A stretch of DNA of 15,272 nt from the NCBI GenBank assembly GCA_026193555.1, contig JAPHUU010000420.1, positions 1-15,272 of the forward strand, in the 5' to 3' direction. The DNA comes from Rhodanobacter sp. (GTDB taxonomy: Bacteria > Pseudomonadota > Gammaproteobacteria > Xanthomonadales > Rhodanobacteraceae). The notes under the pieces were generated by a model. That model had not been told where the DNA came from, ran no database searches, and worked only from the letters and a program-made list of their open reading frames with translations. This document shows positions 2,030 to 4,896 of this stretch, piece by piece. How positions within the stretch are numbered: the first letter of the stretch is position 1; every line of letters starts with the position of its first letter. A program made the position numbers and the translations under genes.

Positions 2030-2046
2030 TAGCAAGACGGATGCCA
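2030..2046 (-). promoter_or_regulatory. Sigma-54 (-24/-12) promoter of glnA
   Basis: The minus strand reads TGGCATCCGTCTTGCTA, matching the RpoN consensus TGGCACG-N4-TTGCW with the invariant GG-N10-GC spacing (GG at 2045-2044, GC at 2033-2032). The inferred transcription start is near 2020, giving a leader of about 40 nt before the glnA ATG at 1980. The same element, differing at one base within an 18-nt core, precedes torF. RpoN promoters need an activator such as NtrC. Confidence 0.88.
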
Positions 2047-2141
2047 TGCCATGGAACCGCGCGGCGACAAGCACTTGCGCGTGACGGCGCTGCCTGCGCC
2101 ATCACGGGTCGCTTCACATGCGTGCAAAACGCCGTGCTATT

Positions 2142-2158
2142 TGCACCATTATGAGACA
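2142..2158. promoter_or_regulatory. Candidate NtrC enhancer site of glnA
   Basis: The plus strand reads TGCACCATTATGAGACA. The left half TGCACCA matches the NtrC consensus half-site (TGCACYA-N3-TGGTGCA), while the right half matches at 5 of 7 positions. It is centred about 130 bp upstream of the inferred glnA start, within the usual NtrC enhancer range. The torF promoter carries the same half-site at the same distance. A further weak TGC/GTGC pair lies at 2123-2139 but its spacing is off by one. Confidence 0.62.
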
Positions 2159-2166
2159 AGCAAGGA

Positions 2167-2196
2167 GGTGGGCCCGCGCCCTCGCGCGGACCCACC
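2167..2196 (-). terminator. Hairpin terminator downstream of amtB
   Basis: A 13-bp stem (arms 2167-2179 and 2184-2196) closes on a 4-nt loop. Its only non-Watson-Crick position (2173/2190) is a G-U pair in the minus-strand RNA but a C-A mismatch in the plus-strand RNA, which fits a structure selected for minus-strand transcripts. It sits 5 bp beyond the amtB stop and is followed on the minus strand by a moderately T-rich stretch rather than a clean U-run, so some read-through to glnA is possible. Confidence 0.7.
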
Positions 2197-2201
2197 AAGC
2201 C

Positions 2202-3545
2202 TCATGCCTCGTACGCACTCTCTCCGTGCGAGGTGATATCCAGCCCCTCACGCTCCGCTTCCGCATTCACCCGCAGGCCGAATACCGCCTTGACCACCAG
2301 GTAGGCAAGCAACGACACCACACCGCTCCATAGCAGAGTGATGCCCACGCTCAGTGCCTGCACGCCGAGCTGATGGATGATCGAGAAATCCGCCGCACCG
2401 GTACCGCCCAGCGACGATGCGGTGAACACGCCCGTCAACAGGGCGCCGACAATCCCGCCGATGCCGTGTACACCGAACACGTCCAGGGCGTCGTCGGCCT
2501 TGAGGATCTTCTTCAACCCGCTCACACCCCATACGCAACAGACACTGGCCAGTGCACCGATCGCCAGCGCACCCATCGGCCCGACCGTGCCGCAGGCCGG
2601 AGTGATGCCGACCAGGCCGGCAACGGCACCCGAGGCACCACCCAACATCGAGGATTTACCCTTGCCCACACCTTCGATCAGCAGCCATGCCAGCACCGCA
2701 GCCGCCGTAGCCAGCAAGGTGTTGATGAAGGCCAGGGCCGCCCCCGAGTTGGCTTCCAGATTGGAACCGGCATTGAAGCCGAACCAGCCGACCCACAGCA
2801 GCGCCGCGCCAACCATGGTGAAGGTCACGTTGTGGGGCTTGATCGCCTCGCGGCCGAAGCCCAGTCGCGGCCCGATCAGATAGGCGCCCACCAGGCCGGC
2901 GATACCTGCATTGATGTGCACCACCGTGCCACCAGCGAAGTCCAGCGCACCGAGGTTCAGCAGGTAGCCACCGGGGCCCCACACCATGTGGGCGATCGGC
3001 AGGTAGGCGAAGGTAAACCACAGGGCCGAGAACAGCAGCACGGCCCGGAAGCGCATGCGCTCGGCGAACGATCCCACGATCAGCGCACCGGTGATCCCGG
3101 CAAAGGTCGACTGGAACGCGACGAATACATACTCGGGCAGTTTCACACTGGCGGTGAAGGTGTCCGACAGCGTGTCCTTGGTCACCCCGTGCAGGAACAG
3201 CTTGTCGAGGTTGCCGATGAAGGCGTTGCCGCTGTCGAAGGCGAGGCTGTAGCCGTAAACCACCCACAGCACCACGATCAGCGAGAACACCGTCATCACC
3301 TGCATCAGCACCGACAGCACGTTCTTCGAACGGACCAGGCCGCCATAGAACAGGGCCAGCCCCGGCACGGTCATCAGCAGCACCAGCAAGGTGGAAGTGA
3401 GCATCCACGCCACATCGCCCTTGTCGACAACCGCCGGCGCAGCGGTCTGGGCGTGCAACAGCGGCGCGGCCAGCATCATCAGGAAGACGGTTGCAACCAT
3501 CGGCAACCAGCGGCGCAACGTACGGAACAACTTGATGTCTTTCAT
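2202..3545 (-). CDS. amtB: Ammonium transporter Amt family
   Basis: Inner-membrane channel for ammonium, trimeric in the family. The 447 residues start with a basic N-terminus and a hydrophobic stretch (about 13-31) that reads as a cleavable signal peptide, as in other AmtB proteins. About eleven hydrophobic helices follow. The twin pore histidines are present in GGTVVHIN (H210) and DVFGVHGIGGIVG (H360), and the AERMRF loop is present. The C-terminal tail EREGLDITSHGESAYEA carries the GLD-TSHGE-AYE pattern of the GlnK-binding cytoplasmic tail. The start at 3545 has GAGG about 6 nt upstream. It follows glnK by 21 nt, the standard glnK-amtB pairing, so it should be co-transcribed from the sigma-54 promoter upstream of torF. 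GlnK is expected to block the channel when nitrogen is sufficient. Confidence 0.97.
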   Translation of the reverse strand: MKDIKLFRTLRRWLPMVATVFLMMLAAPLLHAQTAAPAVVDKGDVAWMLTSTLLVLLMTVPGLALFYGGLVRSKNVLSVLMQVMTVFSLIVVLWVVYGYSLAFDSGNAFIGNLDKLFLHGVTKDTLSDTFTASVKLPEYVFVAFQSTFAGITGALIVGSFAERMRFRAVLLFSALWFTFAYLPIAHMVWGPGGYLLNLGALDFAGGTVVHINAGIAGLVGAYLIGPRLGFGREAIKPHNVTFTMVGAALLWVGWFGFNAGSNLEANSGAALAFINTLLATAAAVLAWLLIEGVGKGKSSMLGGASGAVAGLVGITPACGTVGPMGALAIGALASVCCVWGVSGLKKILKADDALDVFGVHGIGGIVGALLTGVFTASSLGGTGAADFSIIHQLGVQALSVGITLLWSGVVSLLAYLVVKAVFGLRVNAEAEREGLDITSHGESAYEA

Positions 3546-3566
3546 GGAAACCTCGCGAAATTCAGG

Positions 3567-3905
3567 TCAGAGGGCGTCGGCGTCGAGCTCGCCGGTACGA
3601 ATGCGGATCACCTGCTCCACGGTGCTGACGAAGATCTTGCCGTCGCCCACGCTGCCGGTCTTTGCTGCCTGCTGGATGGCCTCCAGCGCAGCATCGAGCA
3701 GTGTGTCGGTGACGACGGCCTCGATCTTGATCTTGGGCAGGAAATCGACGACGTATTCGGCACCGCGATAAAGCTCGGTGTGACCTTTCTGGCGACCGAA
3801 GCCGCGTACCTCGCTTACCGTGAGGCCACTGACGCCGACCTGCATCAGTGCCTCGCGGACTTCATCGAGCTTGTATGGACGAATGATGCTGCTGATCAGT
3901 TTCAT
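3567..3905 (-). CDS. glnK: PII nitrogen regulatory protein (GlnK/GlnB)
   Basis: Small trimeric signal protein that reports 2-oxoglutarate, ATP/ADP and glutamine status. It is 112 residues, exactly the family length. It starts [20 protein letters not shown], the canonical PII N-terminus. The T-loop [18 protein letters not shown] contains the uridylylation tyrosine Tyr51. The nucleotide-binding B-loop appears as [12 protein letters not shown], and the C-terminal signature [10 protein letters not shown] is complete. I use the start at 3905 (purine-rich AAGGGGAAG upstream) rather than an in-frame ATG at 3947, because the extension ([14 protein letters not shown]) is not PII-like. The name GlnK rather than GlnB rests on linkage to amtB. 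It lies 61 nt after the torF stop with no terminator between them. Confidence 0.97.
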
Positions 3906-3966
3906 ATTCTTCCCCTTGCGGTTGGATCGAACGCGATAACGGCGCACGCGATGGCCAGCGCGTTGC

Positions 3967-4725
3967 TCAGAACGCCTTGCCGAGGCTCAGGATCGCGGTG
4001 GCACGCCCGACGTAATGGCCATAGGCGTTGGTGTAGAGCGCCTTGCTGGCATTGGTGTCGTAGTAGCCCAGCGACACTGAATAGCCATGCTCGAAATTGC
4101 GGGTGACGCCCAGCTTCCAGTCGGTGTAGGCAAAGCCGGCGTTGTGCTTCACGGTCTGGTGACCGACATGGGTATTGAGCACCCAGTTCGGCACGAACTC
4201 GTAGTTCCAGGACAGATCCAGGTAGTCGCTGTTCTTGCTGTCGGCGAAACCGAACAGATTGGTGAACGCGTGCGAGTACTTCAGCGTCACGTTTTTCCAG
4301 CCCAGCGCCGCATAGCCTTCCAGCGTGTCCGGGCTGACAAACCCGCTCGGATAGCTGCCCGGGTAGTAGTACTCGTAGAGGCCGACGTCATAGGTCCAGT
4401 CGCCGCCGAAGCTGCCGCGATATCCGGTATAGGCATCGACTTCCAGGCTGCTGGAGACGGGTGCGGCCGAACTCGAAAGATCCGACAGCCAGCTGATGTT
4501 GCTTCCCCACGCACCGATATACCAACCACTGCTGTGGTCGTACTCCATGCCCGCCTGCAGCGCAGGATCACGGTTGGTCTGGGACAGACCGCGGAACAGG
4601 TAGTCATTGACCACGGTGACGCTGCCGGAGGCGGAGCTCTGCGGAGCATCTGCAGCCCTCGCCGACATATCGACGTTGACGAACAACAGCGCGGCGGCGC
4701 AGAGAAGAATCGTATAGCGGGTCAT
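3967..4725 (-). CDS. TorF-family putative outer-membrane porin (Gcw_chp)
   Basis: A 252-residue exported protein with a hydrophobic signal peptide (about residues 4-25, ending SARAADAPQ). The mature N-terminus has the pattern [18 protein letters not shown], typical of the Gcw_chp/TorF family (TIGR02001), followed by alternating aromatic beta-strand segments and a C-terminal Phe (SLGKAF), as in outer-membrane barrels. Its substrate is unknown. It is first in the torF-glnK-amtB unit and has a sigma-54 promoter, so a role in uptake of a nitrogen compound under starvation is inferred from context only. The start at 4725 is chosen because AGGAG (4734-4738) lies 8 nt upstream and the signal peptide then begins directly. 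The frame stays open to 4800, but that stretch contains the promoter. Confidence 0.9.
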
Positions 4726-4767
4726 CTGACTTGCTCCTGTCTGGGAATGGGAGTAGCCAGACCTCCA

Positions 4768-4784
4768 GAGCAAGACCGATGCCA
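4768..4784 (-). promoter_or_regulatory. Sigma-54 (-24/-12) promoter of torF-glnK-amtB
   Basis: The minus strand reads TGGCATCGGTCTTGCTC with GG-N10-GC spacing (GG 4783-4782, GC 4771-4770). The core CATGGCATCSGTCTTGCT is shared with the glnA promoter with one difference in 18 nt. The inferred transcription start is near 4758, about 33 nt before the torF ATG. Confidence 0.88.
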
Positions 4785-4879
4785 TGACGCTAAATGCCAT
4801 TCAATCAATTAGTTATGACATGACATGAGGCCTGACACCGGGCGTGTTGCCTCATGAGCGAGCGCCCGATCTTGTGCTT

Positions 4880-4896
4880 TGCACCAAATTGCAGCG
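4880..4896. promoter_or_regulatory. Candidate NtrC enhancer site of torF
   Basis: The plus strand reads TGCACCAAATTGCAGCG. The left half TGCACCA matches the NtrC half-site and the right half is degenerate (4 of 7). On the minus strand both this site and the glnA site read TGGTGCAAA, followed closely by GCAC. The distance from the -24 element is 96 nt, identical to glnA. Confidence 0.55.

What the first reader, a model, noticed from the sequence alone, without database searches (positions are those of the whole stretch)
2030..4896. Two near-identical sigma-54 promoters, each with a TGCACCA half-site exactly 96 nt upstream
The promoters of glnA (2030-2046) and torF-glnK-amtB (4768-4784) share an 18-nt core with one difference, and both keep GG-N10-GC. 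In each case a TGCACCA lies at the same distance (start 2142 versus 4880, both 96 nt from the first base of the -24 element). Beyond it the minus strand reads TGGTGCAAA followed by GCAC at both loci. The equal geometry suggests a fixed enhancer layout, or a local duplication of a regulatory cassette within one nitrogen locus. The opposite half of each palindrome is degenerate, so binding may use a half-site or a lineage-specific motif rather than the enteric consensus.
Basis: partly seen in the sequence, partly recalled or inferred. Interest (0 to 1): 0.7.

Follow-up and report, generated by a model that had tools for sequence, protein, structure and literature searches.

The report
NtrC/sigma-54 promoters of nitrogen genes
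The two matching DNA switches look like ordinary nitrogen-starvation promoters (two NtrC sites, a probable IHF bend and a sigma-54 promoter at fixed spacing), and relatives suggest that the spacing is held by the turn of the DNA helix.

Summary
Two sigma-54 promoters (2031-2046, 4769-4784, minus strand) each have a TGCACCA starting 96 nt from the first base of the -24 element. The combined motif occurs at exactly two places in this 2.96 Mb genome, these two; in 45 same-genus genomes it gives 38 hits, 29 at glnA and 9 at the torF-type operon, with no backward-control hit. The TGCACCA is half of the distal of two NtrC-type sites centred 104 and 72 nt upstream of the -24 element, the two best-scoring positions in both promoters. 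An IHF-like site lies 31 nt upstream in both, perfect at torF. This is the classical NtrC/IHF/sigma-54 arrangement, already described for Xylella fastidiosa glnA: a new member of a known kind. 'Fixed layout' is supported; 'local duplication' is not (same-genome pairs are no more alike than cross-genome pairs). By-products: NtrC sites at glnA across 26 genera sit at steps of about 11 bp; the torF-operon upstream region occurs in three forms, one without a sigma-54 match, interleaved on several gene trees. Binding and regulation are inferred, not shown.

The parts
2031..2046 (-). sigma-54 -24/-12 element of glnA, TGGCATCCGTCTTGCT; start of transcription expected near 2020 (inferred)
   Evidence: exact consensus match; sigma-54 score of at least 19 of 20 upstream of glnA in 43 of 44 genus loci
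2065..2077 (-). IHF-like site of glnA, CAAGTGCTTGTCG, 31 nt upstream of the -24 element
   Evidence: score 10.5 of 14; core at this offset in 25 of 43 genus glnA promoters
2110..2126 (-). proximal NtrC-type site of glnA, TGCACGCATGTGAAGCG, centre 72
   Evidence: best-scoring position, 13.7 of 18.9
   Evidence: second-best position, 13.4 of 18.9; half-site
4769..4784 (-). sigma-54 -24/-12 element of torF-glnK-amtB, TGGCATCGGTCTTGCT; start of transcription expected near 4758 (inferred)
   Evidence: exact consensus match
4803..4815 (+). perfect IHF-consensus site AATCAATTAGTTA, 31 nt upstream of the -24 element
   Evidence: only match in the window, 0.06 expected, 12 of 200 shuffles with one; score 14 of 14
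4848..4864 (-). proximal NtrC-type site of torF, CGCTCGCTCATGAGGCA, centre 72 (weak)
   Evidence: second-best position, 11.7 of 18.9
   Evidence: best-scoring position, 14.9 of 18.9; half-site
571..1980 (-). glnA, type I glutamine synthetase
   Evidence: TIGR00653 over cut-off
2202..3545 (-). amtB, ammonium transporter
   Evidence: TIGR00836 over cut-off
3567..3905 (-). glnK, P-II protein
   Evidence: PF00543 over cut-off
3967..4725 (-). torF, putative porin
   Evidence: TIGR02001 over cut-off

Best explanation
Both are NtrC-activated, sigma-54-dependent promoters with a compact enhancer. Sigma-54 RNA polymerase waits at -24/-12. When nitrogen is short, phosphorylated NtrC binds two sites centred 104 and 72 nt upstream of the -24 element (about -130 and -98), 32 bp or three helical turns apart, oligomerises and contacts the polymerase by looping. 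IHF, bound 31 nt upstream of the -24 element, bends the DNA in between. The equal geometry reflects selection on this loop: the NtrC sites must face the right way round the helix. Shown here: motif positions, conservation, phasing, and genes for NtrC, RpoN and IHF-beta in this genome (IHF-alpha only in the relatives). Inferred: binding, bending, looping and the nitrogen response.
For: Two genome-wide hits only, both here; 38 hits in 45 genus genomes, all at glnA or the torF-type operon, 0 backward controls. Two best NtrC-type sites at 104 and 72 in both promoters. IHF core at 30-32 in 25 of 43 glnA and 9 of 9 type-B torF-type promoters, control offsets averaging 0.1-0.3 promoters. NtrC over cut-off in 44 of 45 genomes, G000 included, RpoN, IHF-beta. 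Site centres phased at about 11 bp over 26 genera. Same elements, with a start lost in an rpoN mutant, at Xylella fastidiosa glnA.
Against: No binding or expression data. The proximal site of torF is weak (11.7 of 18.9), and in the 9 type-B cassettes together the distal site stands out little with the palindrome score (z 2.0 at 103). IHF-alpha was not found in G000, which is about 90% complete. 18 of 43 genus glnA promoters lack a good IHF core at 30-32. One genus genome (L128, G084) has no sigma-54 match at glnA and is also the one without NtrC over cut-off.
Confidence: 0.9

Rival explanations
1. The torF cassette is a local duplicate (or gene-conversion copy) of the glnA cassette, so the equal geometry is inherited and not selected.
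For: 18-nt core with one difference. Window pair agrees at 0.436 of 110 positions against 0.256, sd 0.039, maximum 0.355, when slid. Type-B cassettes are closer to glnA of their half of the genus (enhancer segment 0.511) than glnA of the other half is (0.426), sharing departures from the enteric consensus.
Against: Same-genome pairs no closer (0.494, 7 pairs) than cross-genome pairs (0.501, sd 0.051). Outside the sites the window pair agrees at 26 of 77 positions. Type-A torF promoters keep similar half-site positions with other flanks and without the IHF core.
Confidence: 0.12
2. A sigma-54 activator other than NtrC uses these sites, or NtrC binds as a half-site reader with no functional proximal site.
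For: G000 has many NtrC-like activators (28 matches scored for the NtrC model, 1 of those listed over cut-off). The distal outer half-site is weak.
Against: Both promoters drive the classical NtrC targets; relatives carry full GCACC-N5-GGTGC palindromes at the same positions; position 72 is the strongest for glnA in both halves of the genus.
Confidence: 0.06
3. Chance coincidence of common motifs.
For: Each motif alone is not clearly significant within the window.
Against: 38 real hits and 0 backward-control hits in 45 genomes, at the same genes.
Confidence: 0.01

Closest known systems
Xylella fastidiosa glnA (XF1842) sigma-54 promoter (PMC3224663, section 16 read)
   Same: -24/-12 element upstream of glnA, two putative NtrC sites, perfect IHF match AATCAA-N4-TTG; cluster with PII, ammonium transporter and NtrBC
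   Different: There the transcript start was mapped and was lost in an rpoN mutant; nothing is measured here. The paper reports no sigma-54 promoter for the PII-transporter genes in the section read; here the operon, led by a porin gene, has its own cassette.
Enteric glnAp2 enhancer-promoter (NtrC sites; recalled)
   Same: Two NtrC sites 32 bp apart upstream of a -24/-12 promoter, activation by looping
   Different: Recalled enteric distal sites are near-perfect palindromes and glnAp2 does not need IHF; here half of each site is weak and an IHF-like site is present.
IHF-assisted sigma-54 promoters such as nifH and glnH (recalled)
   Same: IHF site between enhancer and promoter
   Different: The enhancer-promoter distance is shorter and repeated with the same value at two genes of one locus.

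Membership tests
NtrC-activated sigma-54 promoter | -24/-12 element with GG-N10-GC | tested here: met
   exact matches at both places
NtrC-activated sigma-54 promoter | NtrC-type sites about 100-140 bp upstream of the start, usually a pair | tested here: met
   two best positions at centres 104 and 72 in both promoters; the torF proximal site is weak
NtrC-activated sigma-54 promoter | position conserved in relatives | tested here: met
   37 of 44 genus glnA loci; 38 pattern hits in 31 of 45 genomes
NtrC-activated sigma-54 promoter | NtrC and sigma-54 encoded in the genome | tested here: met
   G000:C49 NtrC over cut-off; G000:C132 RpoN over cut-off
NtrC-activated sigma-54 promoter | transcription depends on rpoN, ntrC and low nitrogen | not testable with these tools
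   needs expression data
IHF-assisted sigma-54 promoter | IHF consensus between enhancer and promoter | tested here: met
   perfect at torF, 10.5 of 14 at glnA, offset 31 in both
IHF-assisted sigma-54 promoter | both IHF subunits encoded | tested here: inconclusive
   IHF-beta in G000; IHF-alpha over cut-off in 44 of 45 genus genomes but not in G000
Local cassette duplication | two copies in one genome more alike than copies of different genomes | tested here: not met
   0.494 (7 same-genome pairs) against 0.501, sd 0.051

The most novel reading that the evidence does not exclude
The bacA-torF intergenic region is a swappable regulatory module: recombination between species puts torF-glnK-amtB under the compact NtrC/IHF/sigma-54 cassette (type B), under a different sigma-54 promoter (type A), or under a long region without a sigma-54 match (type C), while glnA keeps its own cassette. 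Wherever an NtrC enhancer is present its distance is quantised in helical turns, so cassettes survive only in whole-turn versions.
Probability: 0.3. Interest if true: 0.5.

Novelty: new member of a known kind. Interest (0 to 1): 0.3.

Why it matters
It maps nitrogen control in a little-studied lineage and yields a comparative data set in which the spacing of a bacterial enhancer can be read in helical turns across 26 genera. If the type A/B/C switching is real, it is a natural case of promoter exchange that decides whether ammonium-uptake genes answer to nitrogen starvation.

Tried and rejected
Considered and rejected: the GCAC after TGGTGCAAA as a conserved second half-site (different distance in the two promoters; absent from the group consensus); recent local duplication; chance. 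A simple scan of 1900-5060 found no sigma-70-type promoter and no T-run terminator, and Rfam gave no match at gathering scores in the window. G000:C238 holds a third near-identical sigma-54 match, with no GGTGC or GCACC in the 157 nt read upstream of it.

Weak or inconclusive: similarity outside the motifs cannot test old homology, since even glnA orthologues of the two halves of the genus agree there at only 0.300 against a slid background of 0.275, sd 0.009. The RpoB, NtrC, BacA, GlnK, AmtB and TorF trees disagree with one another, some genomes lack RpoB, and many are fragmented; the TorF tree does not interleave B with C, it puts B in two neighbouring groups next to C, which fits torF travelling with its promoter but is no proof. 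(order-wide pattern; 64 and 51 of 299 genomes matched, with 1 and 4 backward-control hits) entered no count, because many hits outside the family look like chance.

Dropped rows: G027 had no glnA match (58 of 59). Phasing used 94 of 99 glnA promoters; left out were L128 and L172 (no good promoter) and L090, L094, L121 (promoter more than 110 nt from the start codon), by the filters. L183 and L186 were skipped, so G093's glnA is missing from the genus count of 44. Of 45 genus genomes 15 were classed type A, 9 B, 8 C; 13 were not classed, mostly because no such operon lay in the fetched stretch (my tally). caught only two type-B cassettes through too narrow a window; one search corrected this to nine.

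Full report
What was checked. On the minus strand lie torF (3967-4725), glnK (3567-3905), amtB (2202-3545) and glnA (571-1980), named from Pfam and NCBIfam; divergently, bacA/uppP starts near 5057 (start codon my choice). Each motif alone could arise by chance in a window of this size. The combination TGGTGCA-N70..100-TGGCAYN5TTGCW has exactly these two hits in the genome, and in 45 genus genomes 38 hits in 31 genomes: by coordinates 29 upstream of glnA and 9 upstream of the torF-type operon (one of these, G078, sits at a contig end so that its gene was not seen), with none in the backward control. Spacers are 93-96 in 36 of 38 hits and 85, about one turn less, in two.

Anatomy. I scored a recalled NtrC consensus (TGCACYANNNTRGTGCA, my weights) at every position. 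In both window promoters the two best sites are centred 104 and 72 nt upstream of the first base of the -24 element: 13.4 and 13.7 for glnA, 14.9 and 11.7 for torF, of 18.9. The 32 bp between the sites is the distance recalled for enteric glnA. Some relatives carry complete GCACC-N5-GGTGC palindromes at these places, for instance L102, L104, L111, L115 and L147 for the distal site (half-sites starting at 111/101 or 112/102) and L133, L154-type loci with a half-site at 79/80 for the proximal one.

IHF. Exactly 31 nt upstream of the -24 element both promoters have an IHF-like site. At torF it is a perfect WATCAANNNNTTR (4803-4815, the only one in the window, 0.06 expected); at glnA it scores 10.5 of 14. 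Offset 31 is the highest-scoring offset in 16 glnA promoters of the window's half of the genus and in the 9 type-B torF-type cassettes, and second (7.98 against 8.04 at offset 16) in the other 27 glnA promoters. At least 5 of 6 core bases are matched at 30-32 in 8 of 16, 9 of 9 and 17 of 27, but in 0 of 13 type-A torF promoters; control offsets average 0.1-0.3 promoters, with a maximum of 3.

Trans factors. NtrC is over its curated cut-off in 44 of 45 genus genomes, G000 included. RpoN is over cut-off in G000, its N-terminal piece on another contig. IHF-beta is over cut-off in G000. IHF-alpha is over cut-off in 44 of 45; the one without is G000, most simply because the assembly is incomplete.

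Helical phasing. In 94 glnA promoters of 26 genera the NtrC-site centres gather at about 59-60, 72, 82-83, 94-95 and 103-105 nt. Counting each genus-position pair once (55 pairs, best site only), the concentration is R = 0.746 at a period of 11.1 bp, against at most 0.322 in 100 shuffles of the sequences and at most 0.494 when each genus is shifted by a random 0-10 nt, 100 times. Bare half-sites show the same: GGTGC 0.641 at 11.0 and GCACC 0.681 at 10.6, maxima of 500 uniform draws 0.380 and 0.465. Caution: TGCA is its own reverse complement, so a strong site casts a weak shadow 13 bp away in the palindrome score; the bare half-site counts do not depend on that score. Face-of-the-helix dependence of a two-site NtrC system is stated in a review (PMC7408454, passages seen), so the principle is known. 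In the searches (listings and starts of abstracts) I saw no comparative survey of it, but these were narrow searches of an open-access library.

Duplication or not. Type-B torF-type cassettes resemble glnA cassettes of their half of the genus (enhancer segment 0.511) more than glnA of the other half does (0.426), and share departures from the enteric consensus. The window pair agrees at 0.436 of 110 positions against 0.256, sd 0.039, when slid, but outside the sites at only 26 of 77. Same-genome pairs are no closer (0.494, 7 pairs) than cross-genome pairs (0.501, sd 0.051). A recent local duplication or gene conversion is therefore not supported; an old one, or a shared lineage preference of NtrC, remains possible.

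Three kinds of torF-operon upstream region. Of 45 genus genomes, 15 are type A (sigma-54 promoter 96-141 nt before torF in the 13 that have torF there), 9 type B (like the window) and 8 type C (intergenic region of 674-770 nt with no sigma-54 match of score 17.5 or more); 13 were not classed. Type C also occurs in 5 genomes of two other genera, with 653-702 nt (my tally). B and C interleave on a tree of BacA, GlnK, AmtB and part of GlnA, on AmtB, GlnK and BacA singly and on RpoB, but not on TorF, where B forms two groups next to C. Aligned from within bacA into torF, G087 and G086 are 100% identical over the first 800 nt, then 98 and 91% in the next two 200-nt steps, then 62-85%: what a recombination tract would look like, though both are fragmented assemblies with 2-3% estimated contamination. 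This is the most novel reading and it is not proven.

What is known. In Xylella fastidiosa glnA, primer extension mapped a single start that was lost in an rpoN mutant, and the authors noted two putative NtrC sites and a perfect IHF match AATCAA-N4-TTG (PMC3224663: passages, section 16 read). The searches (listings and starts of abstracts) showed no paper on these promoters in this lineage or on a sigma-54 promoter of torF-glnK-amtB; subscription papers are mostly outside the library. The finding is a new member of a known kind: well conserved, correctly noticed, mechanistically ordinary, with a clean phasing pattern as its best by-product.

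Noticed in passing
L087, L105, L112, L135 (bacA-torF intergenic region, type C); L095, L099 (type A leader): AGACGTC-type repeats (for example AGACGTCTAGACGTCT) stand just before torF in types A and C but not in the window; they recall the MetJ box (recalled). Type C also has a conserved TTGCAATGCAGCAA palindrome roughly 430 nt before torF.
   Followed up: no
L183 (G016): glnA-torF-glnK-amtB-glnA: two full-length-like glnA genes flank the operon.
   Followed up: no
L121 1904-3406 (G077): The gene behind the type-B cassette is not torF but another porin, BBP2 family (PF07642). 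G088 also lacks a torF match there but its gene was not examined.
   Followed up: partly
L130, L131, L133, L134 and others: In several genomes of the family bacA and glnA are direct divergent neighbours, without torF-glnK-amtB between them.
   Followed up: no
L091 941 onward against L093 1 onward: bacA-torF stretch of G087 and G086 is identical over 800 nt and then diverges sharply inside torF and beyond.
   Followed up: partly
L090, L094, L121 (glnA upstream): The glnA sigma-54 promoter lies 160-166 nt from the start codon instead of 49-72 in most others: an extra stretch of about 100 nt in the leader.
   Followed up: no
window 2167-2196: A G+C-rich inverted repeat between amtB and the distal NtrC-type site of glnA, perhaps the amtB terminator, though without a T run (read; one search lists no terminator).
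   Followed up: no
G000:C238:4656-4671: A third, nearly identical sigma-54 match (TGGCATCCCTCTTGCT) precedes a 164-codon ORF of unknown function, without an NtrC half-site in the 157 nt read upstream.
   Followed up: partly
window 12253-15270: A FIST-domain protein is followed at once by a GGDEF-EAL protein (open at the window end), a possible sensor and c-di-GMP pair.
   Followed up: no
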